Source: Brucella pseudogrignonensis (lineage in GTDB: Bacteria > Pseudomonadota > Alphaproteobacteria > Rhizobiales > Rhizobiaceae). Taken from it: DNA of 64,000 nucleotides. The stretch covers positions 186,001 to 250,000 of the forward strand of contig NZ_NNRM01000044.1 in the NCBI RefSeq assembly GCF_002252525.1. Direction: 5' to 3'. Position 1 is the stretch's first letter; each line of letters begins with the position of its first letter. The position numbers were made by a program, and so were the translations under genes. Shown here piece by piece: positions 15,826-32,241 of the stretch. The notes under the pieces are model-generated. The model searched no databases. It was not told where the DNA came from and was given only the letters and a program-made list of their open reading frames with translations.

Positions 15826-16940
15826 TTACGATCTGATCGACTGCGCCTCCCTTGCAACGGCCCACATGAAGCCACTCAGCTCGCGGGCAATGGCGGTACA
15901 AACGACCGTCGTTCGCTTTCCTCGTCTGATTAACGTTCGATACCGCGCAGTCAACCGGCTCTGAGCCTTCCATGCTATCTCCCGCACTTTCGGAGGCGCT
16001 TGCTCCATACGGTACACCTTCCTCGCGCCGACCTTCGGTGGATGGCGATATGTCCAGGCGCTCTCGACCAACATGTGCCGAACGCGCCCATTGCCCGCCT
16101 TGGTGATTGAGCCCCGTCTGACCGTCTCACCCGTTGATCGCTCACCCGGAACCAGGCCGAGATAGCCCATCAATTGGCGGGAGCTTTAAAAGCGGGTCAC
16201 ATCACCGACCTCTGTTGCATAGGTGACGGCAACGATCAAATCGACCCCTCGTAACGTCTGTAGAGCTCGAACGACGCGCGCGAGAGACCAGGTGGGGATA
16301 AACTCTTCAATGACCTTCTCCAGTCGTTCGACACGCTCCTTCGAGAGGCGAACTGCCTCGACCATTTCCTGCAAAGCGATCTGATGCGCGGGGTGATCGA
16401 AGTGTTGATCCTGCAGCCAGCACAGATATCGCATCGTCCAGCCCTTCTTTCGTGGATAGATGCGACTATGCTTGAGCTTAAAGGCACTTACCTGTTGCCG
16501 ATGAACCCGTAATGTCTAGACAGCAGCAGCTCGAGCACGAACAAGGTCGCGCATAGCCTCATGGCCCTCGTCGGGGACCCACACTGCCGTAAGCTCGCCG
16601 GCCCTCAATAGCCGGGCGAGCGCGAGTGCGTCTCGACGGTTCGTCTTCACCCGGTCGCCAGGCTTCCTCGGGATCAATGACGGGGCAACAACCATGCATT
16701 TATGACCAAGGGATGGATCAGCCGATAGAGGCCATAACCGGTAGGTCCGGCTTCATAGCAGAAATGCACGTGATCAAACTTCGCGGCTATTCGCTGAATT
16801 ATGCGGCGCATGCTGCCATCGGAGGCGTCAACCTCGCCGAAGTAGCGCACCTCTCCGTCCCGGCCAGATTCGGCAACAGCAATCGCATTCTTCAGCTTGG
16901 CGACATCAATTCCGACAAAAGCTTCTCTATAATCTGCCAT
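15826..16940 (-). pseudogene. IS110-family transposase, frameshifted
   Basis: The whole length of an IS110-type transposase can be followed on the minus strand but in several frames. The N-terminal DEDD domain (MADYREAFVGIDVAKLKN) is open to 16674. The middle ([20 protein letters not shown]) continues in another frame near 16510-16670. A linker runs at 16186-16434, and the C-terminal transposase_20 part (MGYLGLVPGERSTGETVRRG) lies at 15826-16173. At least three frame changes are needed, so it is inactive. The ATG at 16940 is taken as the original start. Confidence 0.82.
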
Positions 16941-17205
16941 GGCTCGTCCTCCTGTGATGAGGATCGGCTCGGCCCGTCCGAGCAAACCTCGGAAGACCAG
17001 TGTAGGGCGAGCCACCTCAGGCGCAAAGACGGACATACGGTCTTACTTTAATTCATTGATGAACAATCGCTTTCACAACAGGTATAATCTATTTTTATTC
17101 TAAAGTTGTCACCAGACCAAACCCAAAAGCATCATCGAAATTGCAACAGAGCCAATATTCGGTTTCGATTAACACCCTTTTCCAAAATGAACTGGTAAGA
17201 CACAC

Positions 17206-17955
17206 CTATGGTTGAAAAATCGTCGCCCGATGCCATTCCATAAACATCCGGTGTTTTTGTGTAAGACTCAAATGTTCCCGAAAGCGTAATGTTGATCGAG
17301 CTTCCAGAGTTAAACGCACCGAGAATTCTGGGCTTCCATCGTCATTAAACGTCACCAATCCTGTATCAAAAGCAGCATCCCAGAGCGCAGACAGCAGTAA
17401 ACCATTATGTACATCAAGCCGCTCGGCATCGTTGTCACAATCCTTCCAAGGCTTGATGTGGGAGGCTCGGAGAAGCGCTTTGTCCGTAATACCCGTCAGA
17501 GGGCAACGCCCCTGCCAGTACGCCATCAGCCGCTCGCGAAAGATGTTTTGCCCGACCCGTTGAACGACGAGCCGTTCCGCTTCGGTCGTTTTCGGCAGAC
17601 CCTTCGTCTGGTATAAGAACTCGTGTAGCGGCGCATCCGGAAGACTGACGGCAAGTTCATAAACGCGCGGCATCGCGGCATACAGCATAGCTAGATCGGC
17701 GAACCGATAGCGCGCAAGCCCCGGCCCTCCTCCTTCAATCGGCTCCAAACCAATCTCTGCGACGATACCGGGGTGATCGATCGCGACTACCCAGCCTCCC
17801 TTATTTTCGCGTGCGAGCCAGAGTGAGCCTTGCGCAGTTGTCGAGGTGTAGTGCCGCCAGCCGTTAAGCTCCTCATGTGGCCGCCGGAATCCGTTCTGAA
17901 ATGCTACCTTGTCGCATTCCTGACGGATGACAAAGGACTGCGGCGACTCGATCAT
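17206..17955 (-). CDS. HNH endonuclease, last gene of the DISARM-like operon
   Basis: A 249-residue protein with an HNH nuclease domain in the C-terminal half. It has CPLTGI at about residue 150, then LLRASHIKPWKDC and LDVHNGLLLSALWDAAFD, the pattern of HNH_2 family restriction-type nucleases. The N-terminal half has no recognised domain. Its ATG overlaps the stop of the SMC-like gene (ATGA at 17952-17955), so it is translated with it. In context it is the likely DNA-cutting effector of the five-gene operon. Many HNH proteins of this type occur alone as restriction enzymes. Confidence 0.75.
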   Translation of the reverse strand: MIESPQSFVIRQECDKVAFQNGFRRPHEELNGWRHYTSTTAQGSLWLARENKGGWVVAIDHPGIVAEIGLEPIEGGGPGLARYRFADLAMLYAAMPRVYELAVSLPDAPLHEFLYQTKGLPKTTEAERLVVQRVGQNIFRERLMAYWQGRCPLTGITDKALLRASHIKPWKDCDNDAERLDVHNGLLLSALWDAAFDTGLVTFNDDGSPEFSVRLTLEARSTLRFREHLSLTQKHRMFMEWHRATIFQP

Positions 17956-19919
17956 AAGAAGTCCATTGCAAAGAGCCGCGCTTCAGGCGGCGTCGATGAA
18001 AGTTTGAGCCGCAACGCAGGATGATCAAGCGTGATCTGCGAGGGCGCCGTTGTTGTCGTGACGATATACTGGAATGGGGGCGGACTTCCCTTTTTCTCCA
18101 AACTAAGAGCGAAATCAAAAAGATTGGCGTAGATTCCGGCGTCTAGGTCTGCTTCGCGTGGGCTGTCGTGGATAAGAAAGGACGGCATGTCGGCCTTACC
18201 ATTCACAGACAGGATCATTGCGGCGAGATCGAAGGCTACGATTTTGAACGACTCGACAGCGGCCGTTGATAGTCCCGCGCCACGTTGCAGCAAAATTTCT
18301 GGATGAAGGCCGTTGCCATCGAGCTTCATTTTACCAAAACAGCCTTTAGGCATCAGTGTGGCGACGAGTTGCCCAAAAAGCCCCGCTAGATCACCGATTG
18401 CTGCCGCGGCACGCTCTCGCTCAAGCGCCGTCTTCTGCCGCGCCCCTTCTAGTTTTTTGTCGATGAGAGCTAGGCGTTGAGCTATCCCAACACGATCCTT
18501 CAACTGAAGGTCAAACCAAGTTGTCTCTCTTACGAGTTCGCTCGCTCGGTTGACTGCCATATTAGTCGCCGACATCTGCTGTTCGAGCTGAGCAAATGAA
18601 CCATCGATCTGAGCGATCTCTCGGTCTAGTCGAAGAATCTCTCGGTCTAGTTTGTCGATTTCTGCTGGCAAAGCGAGCTGCTGGCGCTCTAGCTCCTTTA
18701 TCTGTTGCTCGGCCAGCGCAATCCTTGACCGCACTTCGTCGAGGTTGCAACGTTCCAATGAGATGCCGCATCCATTGGCCGTCACTTCATCTATGTCGAC
18801 GTGACAAATTGCACAGCGGACAATGACGCCTGTTTCCAGCCTCGCCTGCTCGGTTCCCTGTTCAGCGCGGGCGGCAGCAACCTGACTCGGAAGGCTATGC
18901 AATAGGGCTTTCTTCTCAGCTCTCGCGTCACTGCTCTTGTTCCGTTCGGATTGCAAAATTTGGCGTTTCTCGCGCAGCCCGTCGCCTGGTCTCTGACCTT
19001 TTGCGTGCTCAGCACCAACGGCCTTTGCCAGCACTTCATTCGCCTTGTCGATGAGTTCCTTGCGGACCAATTCCTCGGTCGGATCACGCTCCTTCGGGAA
19101 AGAAAGCCTTTCACAAAGCTCAGAAAACCGTTGGTTTTGAAACCAGTCGAGATGACCAAGCTTCTCGCGCAGTTTGTCCCGCTCACGCGTGAGAACTCTG
19201 GCCTCGGCGGTGGCCTGGATTTCGTCAGCGGAGAGCGCGCGGATAGCAAGGCGCACCACAGTCAGCTTTGTTTCAAGAGAGAGCTCCTGTGCAGGTGATC
19301 CTGAGCCGGATCGCTTGGACCGCCAATCAAACACGTCATCCAGCCGACACTCTTGATCGCGGGTGAGCCATGCGAGCAAGACGTCCCAAACTTGTTCTGC
19401 CTTCAAGTTTTCAGGAACCTGATCTCGGTAGCGGGTACAAAAGCTCTCCGAAATCATGGGGGCAATCGTCGGAGGTACGGTGGCCACCAGAAGCTCGTCA
19501 AAAGTTTCCTCAATGCGCTCCGCGCGGGAGGCGCGTGACGGTAGGTTCATGCCGAAAGGACGGGTAATCACCCAGCATTCGTCATCTATGATTATCTCCG
19601 CCCCAACAAAACCATTGGGCAGCTTCTGCTGCATGAGTGGTCGCTGTTCTTCGTGGGAGAAGTGCCGCTCACCCAGGCAGTATCGGATCAGACGGCAGAA
19701 TGTTGTTTTGCCACTGCCGTGAGGTGTGGCGCCAGTCCCGTTCGTCGAGAGATCCGGCGACCAGACAATATTGACGCCGCGCCGAAGCGGAATGTCACGC
19801 AGCAAGGTCTGAGGGTCCTGCCAGAGCGCTATGCGTCGAACCCACAGCCTTGGTCCTTGCTGACCTTCCGGCAAGGTGAGCTCAATTTCGGCCGGCTGAA
19901 ACAGATCAGGCTGCAACAC
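17952..19919 (-). CDS. SMC/Rad50-like ATPase with coiled coil and hook-like CxxC
   Basis: A 655-residue ATPase. An N-terminal Walker A (HGSGKTTFC, about residue 68) is followed by a long charged coiled-coil region interrupted near residue 369 by CAIC, placed like the zinc hook of Rad50. The second coiled coil leads to a C-terminal ATPase half with FLIHDSPREADLD (about residue 583), the Walker B-like segment seen in DUF2326-type proteins. Such proteins sense or tether DNA in several defence systems. It overlaps the methylase gene by 14 bases and the HNH gene by 4. A pairing of hook ATPase and nuclease, as in Mre11-Rad50, is an inference from order. Confidence 0.7.
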   Translation of the reverse strand: MLQPDLFQPAEIELTLPEGQQGPRLWVRRIALWQDPQTLLRDIPLRRGVNIVWSPDLSTNGTGATPHGSGKTTFCRLIRYCLGERHFSHEEQRPLMQQKLPNGFVGAEIIIDDECWVITRPFGMNLPSRASRAERIEETFDELLVATVPPTIAPMISESFCTRYRDQVPENLKAEQVWDVLLAWLTRDQECRLDDVFDWRSKRSGSGSPAQELSLETKLTVVRLAIRALSADEIQATAEARVLTRERDKLREKLGHLDWFQNQRFSELCERLSFPKERDPTEELVRKELIDKANEVLAKAVGAEHAKGQRPGDGLREKRQILQSERNKSSDARAEKKALLHSLPSQVAAARAEQGTEQARLETGVIVRCAICHVDIDEVTANGCGISLERCNLDEVRSRIALAEQQIKELERQQLALPAEIDKLDREILRLDREIAQIDGSFAQLEQQMSATNMAVNRASELVRETTWFDLQLKDRVGIAQRLALIDKKLEGARQKTALERERAAAAIGDLAGLFGQLVATLMPKGCFGKMKLDGNGLHPEILLQRGAGLSTAAVESFKIVAFDLAAMILSVNGKADMPSFLIHDSPREADLDAGIYANLFDFALSLEKKGSPPPFQYIVTTTTAPSQITLDHPALRLKLSSTPPEARLFAMDFL

Positions 19920-22900
19920 GGCCCTCCCGGATGAATGGTAGGATAACCGCAGGAACCCGCGCCAATCCCTGATCGAGACTTATGCCTTTGAGCCGAGACC
20001 AAGCGAAAAGTGCGCGACCGACAGCAGGATCATTTGCATTCAAGGTTGATCGATCGAGCCTCTTGCCTGCGCCCCAGAGGGTACCGTCGCTGGAAACATC
20101 AAGCACGGCCGATGAAACGAGGGCATTGAATGCTGTACCCCATGCAACATTTGTTGGCGGAACGAGCTGGGTCACTTTGCTCGGGTGTGCCACGAGACGT
20201 TGCCACTCGCGACGATCTTCTTCAGACAGAAAGCCATCAAGGAGAGCAGGCTGCAGGCAGGCCAGCGCGGCCAGCCGGACGCGACGCACGTCGGAAGGTT
20301 CCGGCAGAATACCCACTAGAGCGCGAAGCTGGGTGCGCACCCTGTCGTGTTCGTTATTAGCTTGCGACCAAGCCCAAACTGCATCCGGTAATTGTCCGAG
20401 CGACGGAAGCTCGATCGGATGCGCAGCAGCAAATATTGCTTCGGCCGTACCAAGAGTGGCACTTCCGTCTCGCTCTAGCCGATCCCATGCTTCCTCGATC
20501 AACCGCTGGGTTCGGAACTCCTTGAACTCGCGGAGTTCAGCGTTTCGAAGTGCTTTGAAGGTTTCCACTCCACAGTCCAGACCAAGGATGTTGTCGGGAT
20601 CGAGGATGTAGAGCATTTCCTGCTTCGACTGGCCGAATACGTCGCGAGCAACAAGAACGTCGATCTCAGCGGCAACGACCGCACGCTGTTCGGGGTCTTC
20701 GACGATTGCATCGGGTGCTTCTAGGATGCCTGCCTTCACCGCCTGTGCCCTGAACTCCTCCATCTCGTCGCCTACGGCACAGAGCGAACAGACGCGGCTC
20801 GCAATGGCAGCGGCTGACGGGGTACGCGCGAAGTCGCGCGGAAAGGGCAGGCTGTCCATGATCGTGTAGGACATCTTTAGTGCAACCTTCTTTCTTACCA
20901 AGAAGTCCATCACGATCGAGTTGGCGACCCCAAGCCAAAGCAAGTGGTCGCGTGGATCAGCAGACAAGATGATCGTTGGCACCTTGTCCCCGCAGATCAC
21001 CCCCGGCGGGATGAGCGCTGCGGTAAGCGCTCGTTGGTTCGTCGGGCTGGCGACGTCGCCGAACCCGATACGATAGCGATAAACCCGGCCCCCTAGCTTT
21101 TCTGGGATCCGATCTTCGACGATGCGCCATTGCGGCTGAATACGCTTTTCTGCCAACCCAAAAGGGAAGTCGTGCCACTCTGCCGACCGTCCTCGGCCGG
21201 ATACATAGCCCTTGGCACGGTAGTCGTAGGCGTCAATCATCCGGCCTTCGAATACGGGAAGGCCCTCAGCCCCCTCCGTGAACAGCTCACGGTTATTGCC
21301 CATGTGAGCTTCGGCCATGTAGTGACGATGCGGCAAGTCTTCGATGTCCGCCCCGAACTTAGGATAAAGGGCATACATTCGGGCGCAGATGTCGATTTCT
21401 GACTGTGCGGCAAATTCCATCACCGCGATCGCCTCCGGCGAGAACTCTTCGACCACGGAAACCGGGATACGCAACCCACCGCCGGTCATAAACTCCTGCA
21501 ACTTCTGGCTGGAGTTGACGCGGAAGGCCGCATTGAACTGCTCGGTCCTGCCGCCCTTCCAGGCGACGTAGAGGCAGAACTTCATACGAGTATCGATCTT
21601 GTCGAACCAGATGCCCTTGGTGTTTTCGAACCCGGCGAGGTGCTCCAAACGAAAGGCCGTGAGCAGTTCCCGCCGGATTGCTGTCGCGTTCGCCCCGTTG
21701 TAAAGGCCCTCGGGCACGAACTGGGCGGCAACCCGGCCCCGTCGTGTTGCGGCAAGGGCGGTTTCGACGAACATGCGGTAGACGTTGAAATCCCCCTTGC
21801 CCAGATTGCCCTCGGCAAACAGGCGGTATCTACCACTCGACTTGATGAAATGGACGGCCGCGTAGAGGTCCGAGCAGTGCTGCTCCCACTGTGCAGCAAG
21901 CACAGGATTGCTTAGCAGTCGGCCATAAGCTTCTTCCTGTTCTTCGGGAGACATGTGCCGGATGTTCGGCTCGTAGACCGAGAAGAACTCCTTGTAATCC
22001 GGGCTCATCGTGTCCCAGGGCGGATTGCCCAGAACAACATCGAACCCGCCCTGCTCGATTATGTCGGGAAACTCCAGCGGCCAGTGAAAGGCGCGGGCGC
22101 GGCGCGCGGCCTTGGGCGCGTCCATCATCGCCTGCCGGATCTTGCCCTGATTGAGGGCCATCCACAGTTCCTCAGTCGTCGGCACGGTGCGGCTTGATGC
22201 CCCTGCCGGCGCGCTGCCCATCTTAGGCAGCAGGAAGGCCGCGACATAAAGGTCTGCCGCCGCCTTGGCGCGGACAAAGGTCTGCTCCTTGCGCAGTTCC
22301 TTGAACCGCTTGGCCTTGGCGCCAATTTGTTCCACCGTATCCTCGGGCAGATCGCGGAAGCCTGAAAAATCCAACGCCAGCGGTTTCATCGCGGGCATTG
22401 ACGCTTGGCCAGTGCCGAAGTCGAACCCGCCTTGGCCAAGTGTCGCGGCTCGATTGGCCTGCAGATAGTAGCGCGCCGTATCCTTGTTGTCGCCCGTCAA
22501 CGGCTTGTAGGCAGCATCGGGGATGCCGTCCTGCAGCACCTTCAGGTCGAACACCCCAAGCAGCGCGTCGCCGCAGCGGATCTGCGCGTCAAAGAAGCCG
22601 AGGGGAAGGCCGGGGTCCACCGTCTCAATCCAGAGCGCTACCTTGGTCAGCTCCACCGCCATTGGATTGCGGTCCACCCCGTGGATACAGCAGCGCGCGA
22701 CATCGCGCAGCGCATGGCGGAAATCCGCGAGCGAGGGCGTGCCCTCGGCCCGGATGCGCGCGAGCCGCGTGGCGATGCGGCGGGCGGCGGCCAGCAGGAA
22801 GTGGCCCGATCCGCAGGCGGGGTCGATGACTGACAGTTTCAGTAGCGCCTTAGCGGGATCGCCCGCCTCGGCCTCGGTCTTGTCGAGGACGGGATCGAGA

Positions 22901-24285
22901 GCGGTGTCGAGCAGCGCCTGAACCAGGCTGTCGGGTGTGTAATAAGAGCCGGTGGTCTTGCGCTGGTTGCCCTTCTGCTCGGCCGCCTCGGAGGCGAAGA
23001 CAAGCGTCTTGCCATCGTCGCCGAATTGCGGCTGCAGCTCGAGAAGGGATTCGTAGACGGAGCCCAATTCCTCGGTCTCCATCGCGCGCCAGTTGACCGG
23101 CACCATGCCGTTCTTGTCCGCGAGCCAAGAGAGGCGGTAGAGCGCCTCCATGAAGGCGCGGTTGCGCAGCGTGGCGGTTTCGAGGTGTGGTAGTCTGTCT
23201 TCCGCGAAGAGCCCGCCGAGAGCGGGCAGCGCGAGGGCCGGCTGGCCATGCGTGAGGGCGTGGAAGACGACCTTCACGCCCTCGTAGCGGTCATGGTGCT
23301 TGTCCCAGGTGGCGGCACGGTAGCATTGCTTGCGTAGCGACTGTAGTGAGTAACCTTCGGCGTAAAGGGTTCGCGCCTCCGGTTTTGCCTTGTCCGGATG
23401 AAGCAGGTTCCGGTCTTCGGCCACCATGAGGAAGATTAGGCGGTAAACAAGACGCAGGAGCTCGTTGAACCACGCAGTGAGGTTCACTTCGCCGGATTGC
23501 AATTTTGCCGCAAGATCTGGGTTGGCTTCGAGGAAGCCGGAGCCGAGAAGCTTGAGAGCATCCTTAACCTGGTATGCCAGGCGATCACGCGCAGCTTCAC
23601 CTTCCTTGGAGCCGGCGTCGCGCCAACGTTCAAGGGGGCAATCGGTGGCGGGGGTCTCTGCTGCGCCAAAGCGGGAGCGGTGGATCAAGAGCCAGAGCAC
23701 AGCGAAGGAGGCAATGTCCTCGTTCGTAAACATCTGGGCGAGATCCGCCTCGATGTATGCGGGTCTGGTCAGCGAGGCATTATCACGCATCAAGCGCAAC
23801 TGCATGCCGTTGGTCACGATGCCCCACAGGGCATCGTCACTGTCGTTCAGGTAGTCCTGGAGCGCGAAGGCCGGGGAGCGCGACCGATCTGTCGAGAGCG
23901 TCGGACTGCGGCGATCGATCTGCTCTTGAGGAGGGACAACCACCATGGGCACACGGCCAGACGCCGACAAAGCAATAGGCGCCAACGCGGCCGTCAGGTC
24001 GTCGTAGCCGAAGGTTTCCTTGAAGAGACCAGAGATGAAGCGAGTTGTCGTTGCCGCCGATGGATGCTCTATCTTCGCGAAGGCGTCAAAATGTGATTGC
24101 CCAACACGGAAGGCTGTTGCGATTTCCTCGCGGATCTGCAGCCCCTTTCGAACGGCATAATCTTCGGGCGTCTGCTCTGGCGCCTGACGTTGATCGATCT
24201 TGGCGATCATTGCAGGAGCGATCAGGTTGCCTTCGAGGCTCAGCGATGGCCAAGCCGACATATCAGTGATGGTCTTGCGAGCCAT
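19906..24285 (-). CDS. Large Eco57I-type N6-adenine DNA methyltransferase
   Basis: A 1459-residue protein with an N6-adenine methylase core of the Eco57I/type IIG kind. It has GSYYTPDSLV, the SAM motif I DPACGSGHF (about residue 487) and the catalytic NPPW in VVLGNPPWDTMSP (about residue 752). Long N- and C-terminal regions (specificity or scaffold) have no recognised motif, and I see no PD-(D/E)xK motif in the N-terminus. It corresponds in size and type to DrmMI of class 1 DISARM. It starts 2 bases after the SNF2 helicase stop. It probably marks host DNA as self; this role is inferred from its family and neighbours. Confidence 0.8.
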   Translation of the reverse strand: MARKTITDMSAWPSLSLEGNLIAPAMIAKIDQRQAPEQTPEDYAVRKGLQIREEIATAFRVGQSHFDAFAKIEHPSAATTTRFISGLFKETFGYDDLTAALAPIALSASGRVPMVVVPPQEQIDRRSPTLSTDRSRSPAFALQDYLNDSDDALWGIVTNGMQLRLMRDNASLTRPAYIEADLAQMFTNEDIASFAVLWLLIHRSRFGAAETPATDCPLERWRDAGSKEGEAARDRLAYQVKDALKLLGSGFLEANPDLAAKLQSGEVNLTAWFNELLRLVYRLIFLMVAEDRNLLHPDKAKPEARTLYAEGYSLQSLRKQCYRAATWDKHHDRYEGVKVVFHALTHGQPALALPALGGLFAEDRLPHLETATLRNRAFMEALYRLSWLADKNGMVPVNWRAMETEELGSVYESLLELQPQFGDDGKTLVFASEAAEQKGNQRKTTGSYYTPDSLVQALLDTALDPVLDKTEAEAGDPAKALLKLSVIDPACGSGHFLLAAARRIATRLARIRAEGTPSLADFRHALRDVARCCIHGVDRNPMAVELTKVALWIETVDPGLPLGFFDAQIRCGDALLGVFDLKVLQDGIPDAAYKPLTGDNKDTARYYLQANRAATLGQGGFDFGTGQASMPAMKPLALDFSGFRDLPEDTVEQIGAKAKRFKELRKEQTFVRAKAAADLYVAAFLLPKMGSAPAGASSRTVPTTEELWMALNQGKIRQAMMDAPKAARRARAFHWPLEFPDIIEQGGFDVVLGNPPWDTMSPDYKEFFSVYEPNIRHMSPEEQEEAYGRLLSNPVLAAQWEQHCSDLYAAVHFIKSSGRYRLFAEGNLGKGDFNVYRMFVETALAATRRGRVAAQFVPEGLYNGANATAIRRELLTAFRLEHLAGFENTKGIWFDKIDTRMKFCLYVAWKGGRTEQFNAAFRVNSSQKLQEFMTGGGLRIPVSVVEEFSPEAIAVMEFAAQSEIDICARMYALYPKFGADIEDLPHRHYMAEAHMGNNRELFTEGAEGLPVFEGRMIDAYDYRAKGYVSGRGRSAEWHDFPFGLAEKRIQPQWRIVEDRIPEKLGGRVYRYRIGFGDVASPTNQRALTAALIPPGVICGDKVPTIILSADPRDHLLWLGVANSIVMDFLVRKKVALKMSYTIMDSLPFPRDFARTPSAAAIASRVCSLCAVGDEMEEFRAQAVKAGILEAPDAIVEDPEQRAVVAAEIDVLVARDVFGQSKQEMLYILDPDNILGLDCGVETFKALRNAELREFKEFRTQRLIEEAWDRLERDGSATLGTAEAIFAAAHPIELPSLGQLPDAVWAWSQANNEHDRVRTQLRALVGILPEPSDVRRVRLAALACLQPALLDGFLSEEDRREWQRLVAHPSKVTQLVPPTNVAWGTAFNALVSSAVLDVSSDGTLWGAGKRLDRSTLNANDPAVGRALFAWSRLKGISLDQGLARVPAVILPFIREGRVAA

Positions 24286-24287
24286 GA

Positions 24288-27059
24288 TTACACCTCCCCC
24301 GGAACGAGCACGAAGAGGCCAATGACATCTGGGGGAATAACAGGTTCGACACTGATACGAGACGTCGAACCAGCGGCGGCGCGAAGACGTCCATGATCTT
24401 CAACCAATTCGCCCGCACGCTTTCGAACAAAGCCGGCAATCGGACCTGTGAGGAGATCCGGCAGAGCAGCCCGTGCCGAGTTTATCATGCGATCTCGAGC
24501 AACAGGCGCCAAGTCTGCGGTCGCGGGAGAGGCGAGTAATTCTCGCGCCTCGCTGCCGGAAGCGATGAGGGTGTTGATTTCGAGGGCAACAAGCGCCGCT
24601 TCTTCCGCCAGCAAAAGGCGCTCGCGCCTTGCATGAACCGTCAGTTTGTAACGGATGCGCAGAAGCGCAACCCGCGTCATCTGAGTTACCGCGGCACTCG
24701 GCCAGGCGCCGACACGACCTATGCCCAGGTCCGGGAGCGATTCACTGTCCAGTGAGGCCTCAAGAAGGCTTTCTGCCAAGGAAGATGTCAGCGGGTGCGT
24801 TCTAGTCAGGAGGGATGTCCCTGACGGCGCTGGCTCCTGCAGTGCAAGCTTGATGGATCCTGTGAGGCCACGTTGTTCCAACGTTTCCTTCAGACTGGGC
24901 TGAAGAGCATGGACATGTGCAAGCTGCAACGACTTCTTCTTTTCCAGTGGAACTCCGAACCGCGACATGGCGCGCTCGACAAATTCAAGCGTCTCATCCG
25001 GTGACCCAAGCAGGGATTTGACCTTCTCCCATTCGGGGGCGACCTCACTGGGCTTCATGGCATTTTGCGCAAAACGAGCACGTGACCGCTTTTCGTTTTC
25101 GCTTGCGTCTCGCCACCGGGTCTCCATCACCTGGATGCCGTTGGTTAGCTGCAGGTCGAGGGTGAGCTGTTGTTGGACTCCGCCACCGCGGCGAAGCATC
25201 ATCGCGGCCATCAACGCATCGGTGACCGGTCCCCGCTCATCTGGTAGAGGAACAGTGACTCCGGTCGCCTTTCGGATTTCCTCTGCTTTTCGGAGAATCA
25301 CGTCGAGCACGGCGCCGTCGATCGCGCTATCGGGCGAAAACATCATGATCGACCGCACGAGCTCGGCAGGTTGGCCAAAGCGATCCACACGGCCTTCACG
25401 CTGTTGATGGCGTGTCGGATTCCAAGAGAGATCATAGTGGATCACCGTGTCGAACAGTTGCTGAAGGTTAATACCCTCCGACAGGCAGTCGGTAGCAACG
25501 AGAATGCGCTGCTCATCAGTGTCAGAATTCACGGCCACCATTTGCGCAACGCGATCGCGGCGTTCGTCCGGTGTGAGCTCTCCCGTCACGGCTTGCACGT
25601 TCAGCTTCGGGAAGGTTTTGCGGAGCCCTTCCTTCACGTGTTCCGCCGTCGCGAGGTAGCGGCAGAAAACGACAGGGTTCGCGCCTTCCTTGATCAAAGG
25701 CTTGAGGGCCTTGATGAGGGCGTTCAGCTTGGGATCATCCGCTGAAAGAAGTGTGCTGGCCTTATCAAGCAGGCCTTGGAGCGCGGGATCGTTGGAGAAG
25801 ACGGTGTTTGGCTCGATGTCGACAGCGTCTTCGTCATCGCCATCCTCGTCATAGATCTGCGGCTCGAGGCGCTCATCTTCGTTGGACGCCCGATTTCGCA
25901 GCGCACTCATTGCCGCAGCAGGAGATGAGCCGACACACCGCATCAGTGCCAGCGTGCCCCAGAAGGCAAGACGACGATCCTTCTGCGTATCTCCCGCCCG
26001 AGAGACGACAGCGAAGCAATAATCGAGGACAGCCTCATGAAATGCTCGATGTTCGTCGTTCAGACGGTACGAGTATTCGGTGGTCTCGTGCTTCGGGAAG
26101 GCACGGTTTTCGTCCCACGCCCCCTCTATGAGATCGACGCGTCGCCGCTGAACGAATTGTCTGGCAAGGCGCTCCCGGTACTTTGGGTCATCAAAGTTCA
26201 CGGTACCGAACTCCTGGTCGATCAACGACAGGAGCCGGGCGAATGCCTCTTCATCTCCGGAATGCGGTGTTGCGGTCAACAGGACCAGCCGACGCTCCGG
26301 ATCGCGTGAAAGACCCTGCAGCAAGTCGAAGCGCTGCTGCCTCCCTTTATGCGTCCCCACGCAGGCATGGGCTTCATCTATGATCACGAAGTCTGGGCAC
26401 GCCCTGGCAAAACCATCGCGACGCTTTTCTGCCTTGATGTAGTCGAGACTGACGACTGTGAAGGGGTAAGCATCGAACAAGGTCTGCGCCAACGGCAGAT
26501 TTCGCTCCAGACGTACGGCCGTCCCGGAGGTGACGGCAACAGCGTCAATCCCGAACCTGTCCTTCAGCTCGATGATCCACTGATCAACGAGATGAGGTGG
26601 GCATAACACCGAAAAGGCGTCGACCTCACCACGATCCATGAGTTCGCGAAGAATCAGGCCCGCTTCGATCGTTTTGCCGATTCCGACGTCGTCAGCGATC
26701 AGTAGGCGCGGCACCTGTAGACGCAAAGCCATCAACAACGGAACGAGTTGGTAGCTGCGCGGCTCGAATGCGAGCTGCGCGGCCGAGCGAAACGGCCCCG
26801 CGCCGCGACGAAGGGTCAGCCGGAGCGAATCCGCAAGGAGTGCCGCCTTTGACTGAACAGTCGGGCGAGCATCGTCCGGCAGGTCAAAGCGAGCAGCTTC
26901 GACAGGCGTCAGTTCGAGATCCGGTGCGAGAACAACGATGTCGTTTTCGTTACCTGAGAGTGGGCGTAGAGCGAGGAGCCCCTCCCCAGGTGCCGGCAAA
27001 GCTACCCATTCCCGGCCGCGTGCTTTGATTAGGTCGCCAGGAGTAAAATTCAGTGTCAT
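24288..27059 (-). CDS. SNF2-family DNA helicase/translocase, DrmD-like
   Basis: A 923-residue SNF2/HepA-like ATPase. It has motif I DDVGIGKTIEAG near residue 120, motif II IIDEAHAC, motif III LLTATPHSG, and in the second RecA domain QREGRVDRFGQ (motif VI). After the helicase core there is a long region of unknown function. The ATG at 27059 lies one base after the upstream TGA and is preferred to the longer frame opening at 27131 inside the previous gene. Size and class resemble DrmD of DISARM. It would move along DNA, probably to find or process unmodified invading DNA. Confidence 0.82.
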   Translation of the reverse strand: MTLNFTPGDLIKARGREWVALPAPGEGLLALRPLSGNENDIVVLAPDLELTPVEAARFDLPDDARPTVQSKAALLADSLRLTLRRGAGPFRSAAQLAFEPRSYQLVPLLMALRLQVPRLLIADDVGIGKTIEAGLILRELMDRGEVDAFSVLCPPHLVDQWIIELKDRFGIDAVAVTSGTAVRLERNLPLAQTLFDAYPFTVVSLDYIKAEKRRDGFARACPDFVIIDEAHACVGTHKGRQQRFDLLQGLSRDPERRLVLLTATPHSGDEEAFARLLSLIDQEFGTVNFDDPKYRERLARQFVQRRRVDLIEGAWDENRAFPKHETTEYSYRLNDEHRAFHEAVLDYCFAVVSRAGDTQKDRRLAFWGTLALMRCVGSSPAAAMSALRNRASNEDERLEPQIYDEDGDDEDAVDIEPNTVFSNDPALQGLLDKASTLLSADDPKLNALIKALKPLIKEGANPVVFCRYLATAEHVKEGLRKTFPKLNVQAVTGELTPDERRDRVAQMVAVNSDTDEQRILVATDCLSEGINLQQLFDTVIHYDLSWNPTRHQQREGRVDRFGQPAELVRSIMMFSPDSAIDGAVLDVILRKAEEIRKATGVTVPLPDERGPVTDALMAAMMLRRGGGVQQQLTLDLQLTNGIQVMETRWRDASENEKRSRARFAQNAMKPSEVAPEWEKVKSLLGSPDETLEFVERAMSRFGVPLEKKKSLQLAHVHALQPSLKETLEQRGLTGSIKLALQEPAPSGTSLLTRTHPLTSSLAESLLEASLDSESLPDLGIGRVGAWPSAAVTQMTRVALLRIRYKLTVHARRERLLLAEEAALVALEINTLIASGSEARELLASPATADLAPVARDRMINSARAALPDLLTGPIAGFVRKRAGELVEDHGRLRAAAGSTSRISVEPVIPPDVIGLFVLVPGEV

Positions 27060-27060
27060 A

Positions 27061-30000
27061 TCAACCTGCAAAATTCTTGATAAAACCGTCTGGTAGCCCT
27101 TCGGACGAAACTTCGGGCAAGCTGTATACAACCCAGCCCTTGCTCATCGCATCCGCCTTAGCTTCCGATGTCAGCTTTTTGGTTGACGCAGCAACCATAC
27201 TTGCACGCCACGCAAACTCGAACTCGACGCCCCCGAAACGGGCGGGGATTGTATCGATCTGAGGAATGCCAGCGGCTCCGAACGCCTCAAGCCAAGGCGA
27301 TACCACTGCGCCTGGTGCTGCCTTTGCCGCTCGGGAAATCTTTCCCCGACTCAGATCGATTAGGAACTGCGCAACTTGTGGGCTCGCGCGATTGATCAGC
27401 TCGTGGTCTGGCTGATTGAAGTAGGAGAGAAGGCAGCGATAGCAGCCACGTACGCAACTCCCATCCTCTTTCTTCTGCAGCAGATCTGCATCCCCCGCCG
27501 CAATCGCAGCATCTACATTTTCGAAATGCATCAAGCAGAGCGCCGTCTTGGCGACCTCATTGATTGCTCTTCCGTCGTCAATCAGGCGCGTAAGCACGCC
27601 GGCTCCGCCTTCGGTCGCCTCATAGGTGAGAATTGCTCGCCTGTTATCTCTCGCGGGCAACGGCTCACTTAGGATTTCACCTTCCTCGAGCTGGAAGACC
27701 ACCTCTATCCCACGCAGCAATGCATATTGAACCGTTGCGATCGTTTCCGGCTCGTATTGTTCTGGCCTTTCAAAGCGGAGCAGCAAGGCATTCTTTCGGT
27801 CGCGAACGATTGGTACTATGCGGACCGGTTTCACCACATCCGGCGGCACATCCGTGTCACCATCCTCTCCGTCGGACTTCGCCCAGTAACCGGATCTGGG
27901 ATCGATGTGGAAGCCGAAGACGGTCTGATCTTTTCGACGCTTCAGGCCCTTGTTCAAGCGGCTGATTTCGGCGCTATTGGCGTATTGAAGTGAAAGGAGC
28001 GACGTTTCTTCACAGACGAACTTGGCGTTGGTCACCTGGATCTGGCCATCCCTTTTCGGCCAGGAGAACACGGTCTGGATATCAAAGCCCTGCCTTACCC
28101 GTTCTTCATCGTTTGCCGTAATGCGCTCAGTCGGCGCCGCTTCGACATTGTCGATACGAAGCGTCTTCTTGATGGGGACCTCTCCAGCCATGTGATTGTC
28201 GCACCCGTGACAACGCTCCACTTCGCCTTCGTGGGACGCACCACAGTTGGAGCAAATGTAGATATCCTTGGTCGCCAACTCGGATCCATCGCCTTGGCGT
28301 ACCTCGGGGGGCAGCTTAGCCTTCATAACCCGATAGGCACGGCCTTCATGGTATATCAGACTGCGCGGCCCGAACTCGGAAATGGCTAGAAAACGGGCCC
28401 TGGACAGGAATGTGCCGGTTTTCCCTTCACCGGGTACGAACGCGTACAGCGGTAGGCGTGGGAAATTGTACCCAGGCAGGAAGCCTTCCGTCGCGAGATA
28501 CCGATACGAATAGAAATCGGATCCATTCGAGGCCTTGCCTTGTTCGAGGATTGCAATTTGATCCTGGGCTTGCATCTGCGCGGCCTTGATCTTGCGTCGG
28601 TCCGCTCCCGAGAGCCCAGTGATCTCCGAGCGCTTGTTCGCCTCGGCCAACTGCGTTCTTGCGGAGCTGTAGAGCTCACGCCAACGGTCAAATGCCCGAT
28701 CAAATGCCTTCGGCGCGTTCATGGCCGTTTGAAGAACGAACGCGTCCGGATCTTCCATCCAGATTGGGGTCTTGCCACCATCGGACGCCAGAATCTGTTT
28801 CAGAACTCGCGTCATCGGATCGCGCGCGCCAGAGACAAGAGTAGACTTCGAAACTACCGCCAGAACCTCGTCCTTCAGCGGGAATTTATCGGCGTGAAGG
28901 TCTAGGATTTCAGGAATATCGGGGGAAAGCGCCAATTTCGCTTCCGCCAGCCAAACCGCATGAAGGTGCGACCGGACAAGTTCCTCATTCGTGATGTCAA
29001 GCGCGGGCGGCCGAACTACACCGGCCACCATATCATTGCGCCGTTCAAAGAAATACTGGTCGTGCGGAGATCCCGAAGCGCAGTACGTCACGACAACCGC
29101 CGCCTGCCCAGACCGTCCGGCACGTCCGGCGCGTTGTGCATAATTCGCAGGCGTGGGCGGTACGTTGCGGAGATACACCGCGTTCAATGCCGAAATGTCG
29201 ACGCCGAGTTCCATCGTCGGGGAGCAGAATAGCGCTGGCAAAAACCGGTCGGTTTCGCCGGTTGCTCGAATTTCCGTGCGGTACTCCGAAGTCGCGAGAT
29301 GTTGCATATCATCCTGTTCGAACCGGAACCGCCATTCACGCCATTCGCGCTGTTTCTGTGATACCTGCGCCGTATGTTCACGGCCCTCCAGGCCCCAGTA
29401 GGAACTACGCCCATCGGCAAAGTCGTTCGCGATCGCGGTGTAAAGGTCATGGAAGTATCGGTTGCCGCGCTGGCTTTCATCAGAAAGCGCGGGCCCGGGG
29501 ACAAGCCGGACCGCGGATGGTGACAGGCGCCAACCTGTCACGTCACCATCAAGATCGACGGGCACAAGCAGCCCTTCATCGCTCAGGAAGGCAAACACTC
29601 CCTTCATGAACTCGTAGTACTCATCCTTGTTCAGCTTCACGCCTAGTACGGACTTCCGGTTCAGGAACCTTGCAATTCTGGAATTGGGGCCAGCTCGGAG
29701 AAGAGTTTGTTCTTCGCGAAGCGTGACCACATTCTTGCTACCGCCGCGCAGGACCAGAGAAGAGCGTGCTCTCGGCTTCTCCTTCTGGTCAATTGCCCAC
29801 GGGGCCTGAAGAAGCATACGGGATTTCTGAGCCACACCATCGAGGAAGGTCAGGTCTAAGGCCTCGGTCTGAACAGCCAGGCCTTCGAGCATCGCAGACA
29901 ATATAGCCTTGATAATAGCCTGCCGCTGATCGATGCCGAGATCGCCAAGGAGTGGATGGATGGCCATGAAGCGCTCGCGATCTTCCGAAAGTTCCTCAAG

Positions 30001-32241
30001 GCCGAGGAAATTAACATCGATCAGATTGAGAACAGACAGGCTGGGATTGGTGAAGCGCCATCCACGGCGTAGGTCCGTCCAGACACGATGGGCGAGCACT
30101 TTAGCGAGCGAACGCTGTGCGTCTTCACGGATAATGGCGCCAACATTTGCATCGAGAAGCCAATGCTGCCGAGCCTCCTTGTTGGCAGCGGTGAAACCAA
30201 GCGCCTTCACTACCTGAAGGCCGTACTCGTCTTCTGCAAGGCCTTCTGAGCCAGCGGAGATCACCGCGTGAAGAATGGCTCCGCGCAACAGACTTACGAA
30301 CAAGAAGTCGTTGAAATGACCTGACTGCAGTGCGGCATCCTGACGGTTGTCGGTAAAGCCCAGCAGTTTGCGCTTCGTCACAGGTACGCCGCTGCCCGGT
30401 TTGTGCATCCACTCCAGGGCACTGGCCACGAGCAGTGTTGTCGCAGAACTCCGCCCTTCGCCAGAGAGCCCGGCAAGCTTGCTGCGTTCACGCATGCCTT
30501 GCGTGGGCTCGTCATGACAGCAAAGGCAGAAAGCAAACTTCCCTGGGATGAACCAGAAATCATTGCCGCCCGCTCCATGGCGGCCGTCTGCACCCACCGC
30601 ATATGATATCGGGGTGCGCTTCTTACGATAGCCTCTCAGCCGCTCGATGCCATTCTTTTCCTCCCGCCAGCTCTCAGGGTAGCCCTCAAGCTCCCCGGTG
30701 AACTGAAAGTCACTATCGTCGACATTTACTGGGCAGAGATAGCCGGCAACCTCGTCGTCCTCAGTATCGAGCGGGGTGTCATCAATGCTTCGGGGAAGAA
30801 AATACAAATCCCCATCATCCTCGACCTTCGTCACTACATGGTATTCTTGACCACAGCTTCTGCAAAAACGGGTCGGATACAGGCGATTGCCAGGTGCATC
30901 CGGATCCTCAAGCTGCCCTTCAAATAAGATCCGCCGAGGTCTGTCTGTGAGTGTTGTAAATACCTCGCCTGCGCCCGAGATGAACCGATTGAGTTTGAAG
31001 GCTAGAAAAGCACCATCCTTTGTGCCTCCGCGCTCATTCTCAGGCAAGCTTATCCGGGTCAGGAACTTTTCGAGGTAGTCGCGGCAGATTTCGGCCTCGA
31101 CCCCAGTGGCCGACGACAGCTTTTCGACAGCTTGTTCGAATGGGACCGGCTTTTTTCTACGAAGTTCAAGCCCGTCGTCCAATCCGAGCTCCAACTCCAC
31201 CCACACCGAGAGCGGGTGGTGTTTCAAGGCCTCGTCGTCGAGTGTGTCCGGGAGGGACTGTGTTAAGATCTTGCTCAAGGCGCCAACAACGTGCTCAGCC
31301 TTCAAGGCATCATCGGTGGCACGCTGCAAAGACTCGTCGATGACCGCATCCGGGCCAATCTCAGCACCAAACAGTCGTGATGCGACGTTTGCGACAGCAA
31401 CAGCACGGCTCTCATCCGATCCCTCGGATGCCATCGTCGCCGAGGTGCCGATGCAGATCGGTTCTTTGTCAGGAGAGCATCGATCTCGCAGACGCCGAAC
31501 GAGAACTGCAACGTCAGCCCCCTGGCGTCCGCGGTAGGTGTGCAGTTCGTCCAGAATTATGAACTCGAGGCCGGATGCATTTGCGACTACTTGCGAGTCA
31601 AGATCGTCCTGCCGCGTCAGCAGCAACTCGGCCATCATGTAGTTGGTCAGGAGAATATCTGGCGGGCTGGCGGCAATTCGCTCACGCTCTTCTCGGCTTT
31701 CCTGACCTGTGTAACGCTTCACCACCGGCCTGAGGTTGTCGGGCAAACCAGAACCAGCGATGAACTTGTCAATTTCCTTCAGCTGGCTATTAGCCAGGGC
31801 GTTCATAGGATAGACGATGATTGCCGATGTCCGCCGCGGTTTTCCTGCGCGACGAGCACGGATAATTGCGTCGACAACCGGCACAAAGAAGCACAGGGAT
31901 TTCCCCGAGCCTGTGCCGGTCGTGACAACGTAGCTCTTGCCCTGTTTCGCCTTCGCAATTGCTTCGGCTTGGTGACGATGGAAGCGAAGGGGTGTAGCTC
32001 CAAACCGGAAGACTTTGCCCGTACCCTCATCAAGGTCACCTGTGGCGACGAGTTCATCGACCGTCGGCCCAGCCATAAAGCGCGGATTGAGTGATAGGAG
32101 GGCATCAGGCCAAAATTTTCCAGCGTCGTACTGGGCGTCGATCTCGGACTTCAGGTCGGGCGCTCGAATAGTGCTGAATGAACGCGAAAACTGCTCGTAG
32201 GCACCAATTAGCTGATGATCAAATTCAAACGCTCTCATCAA
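27061..32241 (-). CDS. Giant DEAD-like helicase with C-terminal DUF1998 (MrfA/DruE/DrmAB-like)
   Basis: A 1726-residue superfamily 2 helicase. It has motif I TTGTGSGKSLCF (about residue 105), DELHTYRGRQG, TSATM and the motif VI QRAGRAGRSGQ (about residue 1050). Zinc-type cysteines occur in CRSCGQ and in CSNCG...CHGC. The C-terminus carries the DUF1998 signature CVRGCYRCLLSYFNQ. MrfA, DISARM DrmA/DrmB and Druantia DruE all combine this kind of helicase with DUF1998, either in one chain or two; here one chain holds both. It is the first gene of the operon. A second ATG at 32238 is equally possible. Confidence 0.82.
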   Translation of the reverse strand: MMRAFEFDHQLIGAYEQFSRSFSTIRAPDLKSEIDAQYDAGKFWPDALLSLNPRFMAGPTVDELVATGDLDEGTGKVFRFGATPLRFHRHQAEAIAKAKQGKSYVVTTGTGSGKSLCFFVPVVDAIIRARRAGKPRRTSAIIVYPMNALANSQLKEIDKFIAGSGLPDNLRPVVKRYTGQESREERERIAASPPDILLTNYMMAELLLTRQDDLDSQVVANASGLEFIILDELHTYRGRQGADVAVLVRRLRDRCSPDKEPICIGTSATMASEGSDESRAVAVANVASRLFGAEIGPDAVIDESLQRATDDALKAEHVVGALSKILTQSLPDTLDDEALKHHPLSVWVELELGLDDGLELRRKKPVPFEQAVEKLSSATGVEAEICRDYLEKFLTRISLPENERGGTKDGAFLAFKLNRFISGAGEVFTTLTDRPRRILFEGQLEDPDAPGNRLYPTRFCRSCGQEYHVVTKVEDDGDLYFLPRSIDDTPLDTEDDEVAGYLCPVNVDDSDFQFTGELEGYPESWREEKNGIERLRGYRKKRTPISYAVGADGRHGAGGNDFWFIPGKFAFCLCCHDEPTQGMRERSKLAGLSGEGRSSATTLLVASALEWMHKPGSGVPVTKRKLLGFTDNRQDAALQSGHFNDFLFVSLLRGAILHAVISAGSEGLAEDEYGLQVVKALGFTAANKEARQHWLLDANVGAIIREDAQRSLAKVLAHRVWTDLRRGWRFTNPSLSVLNLIDVNFLGLEELSEDRERFMAIHPLLGDLGIDQRQAIIKAILSAMLEGLAVQTEALDLTFLDGVAQKSRMLLQAPWAIDQKEKPRARSSLVLRGGSKNVVTLREEQTLLRAGPNSRIARFLNRKSVLGVKLNKDEYYEFMKGVFAFLSDEGLLVPVDLDGDVTGWRLSPSAVRLVPGPALSDESQRGNRYFHDLYTAIANDFADGRSSYWGLEGREHTAQVSQKQREWREWRFRFEQDDMQHLATSEYRTEIRATGETDRFLPALFCSPTMELGVDISALNAVYLRNVPPTPANYAQRAGRAGRSGQAAVVVTYCASGSPHDQYFFERRNDMVAGVVRPPALDITNEELVRSHLHAVWLAEAKLALSPDIPEILDLHADKFPLKDEVLAVVSKSTLVSGARDPMTRVLKQILASDGGKTPIWMEDPDAFVLQTAMNAPKAFDRAFDRWRELYSSARTQLAEANKRSEITGLSGADRRKIKAAQMQAQDQIAILEQGKASNGSDFYSYRYLATEGFLPGYNFPRLPLYAFVPGEGKTGTFLSRARFLAISEFGPRSLIYHEGRAYRVMKAKLPPEVRQGDGSELATKDIYICSNCGASHEGEVERCHGCDNHMAGEVPIKKTLRIDNVEAAPTERITANDEERVRQGFDIQTVFSWPKRDGQIQVTNAKFVCEETSLLSLQYANSAEISRLNKGLKRRKDQTVFGFHIDPRSGYWAKSDGEDGDTDVPPDVVKPVRIVPIVRDRKNALLLRFERPEQYEPETIATVQYALLRGIEVVFQLEEGEILSEPLPARDNRRAILTYEATEGGAGVLTRLIDDGRAINEVAKTALCLMHFENVDAAIAAGDADLLQKKEDGSCVRGCYRCLLSYFNQPDHELINRASPQVAQFLIDLSRGKISRAAKAAPGAVVSPWLEAFGAAGIPQIDTIPARFGGVEFEFAWRASMVAASTKKLTSEAKADAMSKGWVVYSLPEVSSEGLPDGFIKNFAG

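What the first reader, a model, noticed from the sequence alone, without database searches (positions are those of the whole stretch)
17206..32241. Five-gene DISARM-like operon that matches no class I know
Seen: five minus-strand genes with gaps of two bases or less or overlaps: DEAD-like helicase with DUF1998 (1726 aa), SNF2 helicase (923 aa), Eco57I-type adenine methylase (1459 aa), SMC-like ATPase (655 aa), HNH nuclease (249 aa). Established: class 1 DISARM has DrmD (SNF2), DrmMI (adenine methylase), DrmA (helicase), DrmB (DUF1998) and DrmC (phospholipase D). Here DrmA and DrmB functions may be in one chain, and instead of the PLD protein there is a hook ATPase plus HNH nuclease. Inference: a distinct DISARM-related restriction system with its own effector module.
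Basis: partly seen in the sequence, partly recalled or inferred. Interest (0 to 1): 0.88.

Follow-up and report, generated by a model that had tools for sequence, protein, structure and literature searches.

The report
ARMADA-like operon with swapped nuclease
A bacterial operon that looks like a recently named anti-phage system (ARMADA), in which the built-in DNA-cutting domain has lost its active-site motif and a separate cutting enzyme probably does that job, with a hook-shaped ATPase plugged onto its DNA-marking enzyme.

Summary
The five genes are real and tightly packed. The first three (YprA/DUF1998 helicase, BrxHII/DrmD-like SNF2 helicase, PglX/DrmMI-like adenine methylase, in that order) match the core of ARMADA Type I, named in a 2025 preprint (PMC12458937), so this is not an unknown DISARM class. 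The last two genes are not one module.

(1) The HNH nuclease co-diverges with the core (distance correlation with SNF2 0.94 for its N-terminal half, n=58). It excludes the Vsr-like active-site motif fused to YprA: of 70 operons counted, 53 had HNH without the motif, 16 the motif without HNH, 1 neither, 0 both. HNH looks like a replacement nuclease, but only one or two switches are seen on the tree.

(2) The zinc-hook, LmuB-like ATPase travels with an unannotated ~190-residue C-terminal domain of the methylase (CTD): distance correlation 0.94, partial 0.91 (n=60); gained or lost together in 6 of 7 independent comparisons. The same pair sits on Type I restriction HsdS subunits.

The putative target-recognition region is swapped independently.

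Verdict: new variant of a known kind, with a portable ATPase cassette I did not see described in what I could read.

The parts
27061..32241 (-). YprA-family DEAD helicase with MZB/DUF1998 (1726 aa), first gene of the operon
   Evidence: DEAD, Helicase_C, MZB; PADLOC best DruE (E 4.5e-78), DpdJ 4.2e-25, DrmA 2.6e-16. Start may be TTG 32241 or ATG 32238 (sequence).
27064..27390 (-). Degenerate Vsr/PD-(D/E)xK-like C-terminal region of YprA (residues about 1618-1726), active-site motif lost
   Evidence: alignment; no DGPxH motif; no Pfam match, while 3 of 6 intact-motif relatives pass the DUF559 cut-off; alignable to the intact form, profile probability 99.8%, partly driven by the shared DUF1998 end
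24288..27059 (-). BrxHII/DrmD/DpdE-like SNF2 helicase (923 aa)
   Evidence: NCBIfam DrmD 288 bits (cut-off 610), DpdE 196 bits (cut-off 500)
22015..24285 (-). Adenine methylase residues 1-757: N-terminal and catalytic part (Eco57I, NPPW), co-diverges with the core
20521..21993 (-). Methylase residues 765-1255: putative target-recognition region, swapped independently between operons
   Evidence: segments 22-31% (L126) and 18-38% (L072) identical although the catalytic part is 87-93%; correlation with ATPase 0.22. 'Target-recognition' is inferred from position and swapping.
19909..20502 (-). Methylase residues 1262-1459: unannotated C-terminal domain (CTD) that goes with the ATPase
   Evidence: no Pfam family matched more than 2 of 48 members at E up to 1, no PDB match better than E 0.74; AlphaFold2 model pLDDT 86.9, mostly helical
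17952..19919 (-). DUF2326/LmuB-like zinc-hook ABC ATPase (655 aa), GTG start overlapping the methylase stop by 14 bases
   Evidence: C-x2-C hook region at about 18747-18815; HDSPREAD at 18147-18170, read here as a Walker B without the usual Glu (my reading)
17206..17955 (-). HNH endonuclease (249 aa); HNH_2 half at residues 125-249 (17209-17583); N-terminal half of unidentified fold
   Evidence: HNH half matches PDB 6yex, E 3e-34; AlphaFold2 pLDDT 91.6; HNH_2 in 43 of 43 members; no other family in more than 1

Best explanation
The operon is an ARMADA Type I-like, methylation-guided anti-invader system built from three evolutionary blocks. Block 1 (core: YprA helicase, SNF2 helicase, catalytic half of the methylase, HNH) is the marking-and-destruction machine. 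The methylase marks host DNA at sites set by its target-recognition region. The two helicases load on unmarked or single-stranded invader DNA. Cutting is done by the separate HNH enzyme, because the nuclease domain fused to YprA has lost its active-site motif. Block 2 (methylase CTD plus zinc-hook ATPase) is an optional plug-in. The ATPase docks on the CTD, dimerises through its hook and acts as a slow, switch-like DNA sensor or clamp that licenses the complex bound at a recognition site; the same plug-in is used on Type I HsdS. Block 3 (the target-recognition region) is exchanged freely to change specificity. Shown by sequence: gene content, loss of the Vsr-like motif, its exclusion with HNH, CTD-ATPase and core-HNH co-divergence. 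Inferred: DNA cutting by HNH, CTD-ATPase binding, sensing or clamping, anti-phage activity of this operon.
For: Core identity: order and families as in ARMADA Type I; a tree of 30 YprA proteins places the window family apart from an E. coli ARMADA II-like helicase (L142), DruE3 (L143) and an annotated DrmA (89% SH-aLRT, long branches). Nuclease swap: 53 HNH without motif, 16 motif without HNH, 1 neither, 0 both, of 70 operons. HNH_N vs SNF2 distances r=0.94 and HNH_C 0.87 (n=58); HNH_N vs ATPase 0.62 (n=48). Plug-in: CTD found in 57 of 59 operons with ATPase and 0 of 11 without; 7 independent comparisons on supported branches, 6 same, 0 opposite, 1 no difference (p 0.031); r=0.94, partial 0.91, 0 of 999 permutations as high; CTD on Type I HsdS before the same ATPase. 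Phylum sample, own genome included: all 8 ATPase genomes are among the 14 YprA genomes of 398. The kind works: ARMADA II defends E. coli, all four genes are needed, the methylase NPPW mutant loses protection and a SAM-motif mutant loses it partly (PMC12458937).
Against: Vsr-to-HNH changed only once or twice on the tree, so the exclusion could be one historical accident; Fisher's p ignores kinship, and the 70 operons include near-identical ones (L070, L120). Most of the 70 came from a search with the ATPase, so they do not give population frequencies. Two ATPase operons (L131, L132) have no detectable CTD, two (L128, L135) only weak matches; in L131 and L132 the methylase is split. L019 has neither motif nor HNH (an IS21 follows its methylase). 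Of the intact-motif C-termini scanned, L012 matched no Pfam family. No interaction, cutting or phage assay exists for this variant. The paper's ARMADA I reference protein could not be fetched, so clade membership is by features only. In G714 the ATPase frame holds one stop, so it may be dispensable or a draft error.
Confidence: 0.7

Rival explanations
1. One reading: one obligate five-gene system whose effector is a joint ATPase-HNH module, distinct from other DISARM relatives.
For: Five genes in the same order with tiny gaps in many relatives; 36 of 54 core+ATPase loci have HNH within 150 bases of the ATPase.
Against: 7 operons with HNH but no ATPase (L017, L018, L020, L122, L127, L139, L141) and 13 with ATPase but no HNH found (L012, L014, L035, L051, L058, L073, L076, L084, L088, L095, L131, L132, L135) among the 70. 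ATPase and HNH states are uncorrelated in independent comparisons (0.2 same, 0.2 opposite, 6.6 no difference of 7).
Confidence: 0.1
2. HNH is an autonomous restriction or modification-dependent enzyme that merely sits next to the operon.
For: Its HNH half matches PDB 6yex (E 3e-34), which belongs to VcaM4I, a modification-dependent enzyme; remnant loci keep HNH after most of the core is gone (L005/L138, L013).
Against: Co-diverges with SNF2 (r 0.94) and YprA (0.91) across 58 operons; in the 70 operons it occurs only where YprA has lost its nuclease motif.
Confidence: 0.15
3. The ATPase is a back-up suicide arm, like PrrC/RloC or like Lamassu, fired when the restriction complex is inhibited.
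For: LmuB-like family (PADLOC E 1e-18), hook, and a Walker B without Glu, comparable to the E-to-Q change reported for LmuB (PMC10586767, passages); association with restriction systems including Type I.
Against: No Pfam match to a toxin or nuclease in the 655-aa chain; its direct neighbours in the window are methylase and HNH, with no LmuA or LmuC among their listed PADLOC matches; it co-diverges with the methylase CTD, not with HNH. ARMADA II was reported as non-abortive (PMC12458937).
Confidence: 0.2
4. The ATPase serves modification, not defence: it moves or clamps the methylase during scanning, as proposed for DndD with DndE.
For: Co-divergence of a coiled-coil ABC ATPase with a DNA-recognition partner is the pattern reported for DndD-DndE (PMC10853773, passages); here r=0.94 with the CTD.
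Against: The ATPase is absent with the methylase present in 11 of 70 operons.
Confidence: 0.3

Closest known systems
ARMADA Type I (PMC12458937)
   Same: YprA first, then BrxHII-like SNF2, then PglX-like methylase; helicase and DUF1998 in one chain; no ArmD.
   Different: Paper describes a predicted active C-terminal Vsr nuclease in ARMADA I/II; here its motif is lost and an HNH is encoded in trans. A word search of the main text found HNH only in a reference title, and no SMC, Lamassu or DUF2326; supplements not seen.
Type-1 BREX-related (BR) systems (PMC12839542, passages)
   Same: Helicase-nuclease fusion in 79% of taxa; where it is missing, other nucleases including HNH sit nearby and are proposed to compensate: a precedent for the nuclease swap.
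   Different: Core is DUF499 ATPase, methylase and BrxHII-like helicase; no YprA (the word does not occur in that text).
DISARM class 1
   Same: SNF2 related to DrmD, methylase related to DrmMI.
   Different: DrmA and DrmB fused, no DrmC phospholipase among the five; DrmD score far below the NCBIfam cut-off.
Druantia (DruE)
   Same: DruE is the best PADLOC match of the YprA protein.
   Different: No other Druantia gene in the listed PADLOC matches of the ten window proteins scanned; SNF2 and methylase instead.
Lamassu / ABC-3C (LmuB)
   Same: About 650-aa zinc-hook ATPase with altered Walker B.
   Different: Tied to a methylase/HsdS C-terminal domain; no LmuA or LmuC found beside it in the window.
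DISARM-like cassette next to McrBC (PMC11090510, passages)
   Same: L140 (Nocardioides plasmid) has the same core followed by genes annotated AAA family ATPase and McrC.
   Different: Other accessory genes in the slot after the methylase.
PrrC/RloC anticodon nucleases
   Same: PrrC is linked to Type Ic restriction; RloC has a Rad50-like zinc hook (PMC3874168, passages).
   Different: RloC is only rarely linked to restriction genes; no anticodon-nuclease domain detected here; this ATPase follows a dedicated CTD on the methylase or specificity subunit.

Membership tests
ARMADA Type I | Gene order YprA, BrxHII-like helicase, PglX-like methylase | tested here: met
   against the description
ARMADA Type I | YprA with OB-CON-DUF1998 in the same chain | tested here: met
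   MZB (DUF1998 region) at residues 1505-1604; OB and CON folds not tested
ARMADA Type I | YprA falls in the ARMADA I clade of the published tree | tested here: inconclusive
   separate from ARMADA II-like, DruE3 and DrmA proteins, but the paper's ARMADA I reference was not available
ARMADA Type I | C-terminal predicted active Vsr nuclease (reported property, not the naming criterion) | tested here: not met
ARMADA Type I | BrxA-like helical insert, beta-barrel zinc module, MarR-like insert | not tested
   CxxC motifs at 460, 572, 1330, 1344 and 1600 seen; no fold made
ARMADA Type II | ArmD (RelE-UvrD) after the YprA gene; BrxHII-like and methylase genes first | tested here: not met
   contrast L142
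DISARM class 1 | Separate DrmA and DrmB, plus DrmC phospholipase | tested here: not met
   one 1726-aa chain; no PLD protein among the five
DISARM class 1 | DrmD and DrmMI | tested here: inconclusive
   homologous, but NCBIfam DrmD 288 bits vs cut-off 610; PADLOC DrmMI E 1.2e-76
Dpd | DpdE and DpdJ plus 7-deazaguanine genes | tested here: not met
   PADLOC DpdE matches SNF2 (5.8e-189) and DpdJ matches YprA (4.2e-25), but NCBIfam DpdE 196 vs 500 and DpdJ 82 vs 800; 7-deazaguanine genes not searched for in the whole window
Druantia | DruE with its partner genes | tested here: not met
   DruE models match YprA only partly; no partner gene in the listed matches of the ten window proteins scanned
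Lamassu / ABC-3C | LmuB with LmuA effector and (often) LmuC | tested here: not met
   only an LmuB-like ATPase; its neighbours in the window are methylase and HNH
ARMADA | Anti-phage activity | not testable with these tools
   shown in print for a Type II system only (PMC12458937, parts read)

The most novel reading that the evidence does not exclude
A portable two-part cassette (a ~190-residue C-terminal docking domain plus a zinc-hook ABC ATPase) is exchanged among unrelated DNA-methylation defence systems (ARMADA I methylases and Type I HsdS), giving each the same ATPase-driven DNA sensing or clamping step. Separately, one large ARMADA I clade replaced its fused Vsr-like nuclease with an HNH acting in trans.
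Probability: 0.6. Interest if true: 0.75.

Novelty: new variant of a known kind. Interest (0 to 1): 0.6.

Why it matters
ARMADA is new and its restriction mechanism is listed as unknown in a 2026 review (PMC12904381, passage). The natural swap of a fused nuclease for a separate one points to the cutting subunit and separates cutting from unwinding, so each can be assayed alone. The CTD-ATPase cassette on two unrelated kinds of system suggests a shared, so far unnamed step between reading methylation and destroying DNA. It also gives annotation tools two handles: a CTD profile, and the rule 'HNH or Vsr-like motif, not both'.

Tried and rejected
Rejected: unknown DISARM class (core order is ARMADA I); ATPase-HNH as one module (states uncorrelated); ATPase as a chance neighbour (56 of 63 loci with the whole core upstream; the 7 others are L059, L067, L069, L074, L075, L078, L099); HNH as a passenger (r 0.94 with SNF2).

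Led nowhere: PDB and Pfam searches for the CTD gave no credible relative; the PDB search for the ATPase gave two weak matches in coiled-coil or fibre chains; the methylase matched no PDB chain; promoter and terminator scans were at chance. Structure-library search was off, so the folds of the CTD and of the HNH N-terminal half stay unidentified although models exist. Krishnan et al. 2020 (ABC-ATPase survey, cited in PMC12839542) is not held and supplements could not be opened, so an earlier description there cannot be excluded. The lookup for DUF2326 found two unrelated papers.

Rows dropped before counts: loci L001-L003, L033 and L100-L119 (own, duplicate or short copies) were left out, and of 82 loci with YprA and SNF2 only the 70 with a YprA C-terminus and at least 1.5 kb after the methylase/ATPase were counted. 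HNH was sought within 6 kb; loci with little downstream sequence (for example L132, 1.7 kb) could hide one. One search used 69 of the 70 (long enough SNF2). Searches used 60 and 58 (48 with ATPase) loci with complete parts. The CTD profile was built from methylases that mostly precede the ATPase, so its presence there is partly by construction; the five HsdS-type members were not seeds.
Full report
Observation. The five genes are present at the stated coordinates with the stated sizes; the SNF2 frame is 947 aa from a TTG and 923 aa from an internal ATG. Gaps are 1 and 2 bases, then overlaps of 14 and 4 bases. Family searches show a DEAD helicase with an MZB/DUF1998 zinc domain, an SNF2 helicase, an Eco57I-type adenine methylase, a DUF2326/LmuB-like ATPase (DUF2326 below its cut-off) and an HNH_2 nuclease. 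The helicase, methylase, ATPase and HNH motifs looked for are present; the ATPase family carries HDSPREAD where I would expect a Walker B Glu.

What the core is. PMC12458937 (abstract, passages, the first of three parts of Results and Discussion, the section on nucleases and the figure legends read) names ARMADA. Its Type I generally has a YprA helicase first, then a BrxHII-like helicase, then a PglX-like methylase; the helicase is nearest Druantia, the other two are shared with DISARM class 1. The window fits: PADLOC ranks DruE above DpdJ and DrmA for the first protein (4.5e-78, 4.2e-25, 2.6e-16), and SNF2 and methylase match DrmD and DrmMI, DrmD below equivalog level. In a tree of 30 YprA proteins the window family (27 rows) stands apart from an E. 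coli helicase in an ARMADA II-like context (L142: methylase, YprA, GajB-like), from DruE3 (L143) and from an annotated DrmA (L140). Support is 89% with long outgroup branches that the tool warns about, and the paper's own Type I reference was not available, so I call it ARMADA Type I-like.

Relatives. In 72,556 plasmid records the YprA protein matched 164, 70 of them over at least 80% of its length, and the ATPase 10, 8 over at least 80%. Of those 8, five have all five genes in order (L009, L010, L011, L015, L016), two have core and ATPase without a detected HNH (L012, L014), and one has ATPase and HNH without the core (L013). A profile of the ATPase returned 78 loci in genome contigs, the best 80 of 213 confirmed candidates. 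Of 63 with at least 8.5 kb upstream, 56 have YprA, SNF2 and methylase before the ATPase; of 54 of these with downstream sequence, 43 have an HNH within 6 kb, 36 of them within 150 bases. In an even sample of 398 genomes of the phylum, own genome included, YprA was found in 14 and the ATPase in 8, all 8 among the 14. In 385 genomes of the class, YprA was found in 7; the single-protein ATPase query tallied 6, of which 2 are full-length (G000, G311), one is a remnant (G066) and three are weak partial matches. So the ATPase mostly goes with the core, but the core does not need the ATPase. The slot after the methylase is variable: HNH (L018, L020, L127), annotated AAA ATPase plus McrC (L140), a UvrD-type helicase plus HNH (L141), other genes (L129).

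Nuclease swap. The paper calls the fused domain Vsr; here, of six intact-motif C-termini scanned, three pass the Pfam DUF559 cut-off (L035, L073, L084), two fall just under it (L088, L140), one matches nothing (L012), and the Vsr model itself appears only for L084 at E 0.12. These carry a DGPxH-type motif. The window and L072 C-termini match nothing, and the motif is missing in all 53 HNH-bearing operons counted. The remaining region is still alignable to the intact form (99.8% probability, partly driven by the shared DUF1998 end). Of 70 operons: 53 HNH and no motif, 16 motif and no HNH, 1 neither (L019, where an IS21 follows the methylase), 0 both. On the SNF2 tree the motif state changes 2 times and HNH 3 times, so the exclusion is strict but rests on few events. 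HNH distances follow the core: HNH_N-SNF2 0.94, HNH_C-SNF2 0.87, HNH_N-YprA 0.91, HNH_C-YprA 0.85, n=58. The HNH half matches PDB 6yex at E 3e-34; a search listing (PMC7897488) ties 6yex to VcaM4I, an EVE-HNH modification-dependent enzyme. No Pfam family besides HNH_2 is found in more than 1 of 43 HNH proteins. A precedent exists: PMC12839542 (passages) proposes nearby nucleases, HNH included, as stand-ins where a BREX-related helicase lacks its fused nuclease.

ATPase cassette. Segment identities to two near relatives show the pattern plainly. L126: SNF2 91%, methylase 1-760 87-93%, 761-1270 22-31%, 1271-1459 74%, ATPase 79% (over 491 residues; its frame holds a stop). L072: SNF2 92%, methylase 1-760 89-93%, 761-1270 18-38%, 1271-1459 31%, ATPase 31%. 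Across 60 operons CTD and ATPase distances correlate at 0.94 (partial 0.91 given SNF2, methylase N-terminus and target region; 0 of 999 permutations as high), while the target region is barely correlated with the ATPase (0.22; partial -0.06). CTD is found in 57 of 59 operons with ATPase and in 0 of 11 without; of 7 independent comparisons on supported branches 6 go the same way, 0 the other way (p 0.031). ATPase and HNH do not co-vary. Contrary cases: L131 and L132 lack a detectable CTD, and L128 and L135 have only weak matches. A CTD profile found 2 of 398 phylum genomes, both with ATPase, so it missed six other ATPase genomes.

Type I restriction. In L074, L075, L077, L078 and L099 the ORF before the ATPase carries the CTD (E 2e-49 to 5e-39), although it is not an ARMADA methylase. 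Pfam finds HsdR in L074 and L075, HsdM in L075, and Methylase_S in the CTD-bearing ORFs of L074 and L075; L099 has a sub-threshold Methylase_S match in the ORF before the CTD-bearing one; L077 and L078 are read by resemblance only. In L075 and L077 a DUF5655 protein follows the ATPase (with a sub-threshold NucS_C match in L075).

Mechanism. Best reading: methylation marks self; helicases engage unmarked invader DNA; HNH cuts in trans; the hook ATPase, docked on the methylase CTD, acts as a switch or clamp. The need for marking enzyme and helicases follows ARMADA II genetics (all four genes needed, NPPW mutant loses protection, SAM-motif mutant loses it partly; PMC12458937). The rest is inference from co-divergence and from LmuB and DndD precedents (PMC10586767; PMC10853773; passages only).

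Literature limits. Searches for ARMADA, YprA, DISARM, DUF1998, HNH, DUF2326, ABC-3C, Lamassu, HsdS and zinc hook showed, in listings and the passages I opened, no paper describing the HNH swap in ARMADA or the CTD-ATPase cassette. Supplements and Krishnan et al. 2020 could not be read, so this is not a claim of absence from print.

Noticed in passing
window 13230-15255 (-): A second, unrelated ATPase + HNH pair: Septu PtuA (PADLOC E 4.8e-69) and PtuB (8.1e-26).
   Followed up: partly
window 33810-37447 (+): A Gabija pair, GajA (5.7e-262) and GajB (6.6e-212), divergent from the operon, followed by a Type IIG-like methylase at 37843-41178 (1.5e-33): a defence island.
   Followed up: partly
window 47341-50987 (+): repA, repB and repC-like genes (recognised by eye, not tested), suggesting that the island lies on a repABC replicon; the best plasmid matches to 46500-57000 cover at most 28% at about 76-78% identity.
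   Followed up: no
window 15421-17036: Short transposase-like remnants right after the HNH gene (IS66- and IS110-like by eye; Pfam found nothing in 16674-17036).
   Followed up: no
L005 / L138 (G066), L013, L059: Decayed relatives: an SNF2 fragment 95% identical to the window beside an ATPase end and an intact HNH; ATPase+HNH without core (Paracoccus versutus pBEN); a YprA N-terminus abutting the ATPase.
   Followed up: partly
L130-L132: Relatives from the phylum sample with the methylase split into two ORFs; small ORFs lie between them in L130 and L131.
   Followed up: no
L070 11914-13815, L056 12080-13966: A DUF262/GmrSD-looking gene between ATPase and HNH (by eye); annotated DUF262 genes also lie near the operons in L014, L017 and L020.
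   Followed up: no
PADLOC model PDLC02853 ('DpdE'): Matches the window SNF2 over nearly its full length at 5.8e-189 while NCBIfam DpdE is far below cut-off: the PADLOC model may be built from ARMADA-type helicases and mislabel them.
   Followed up: no
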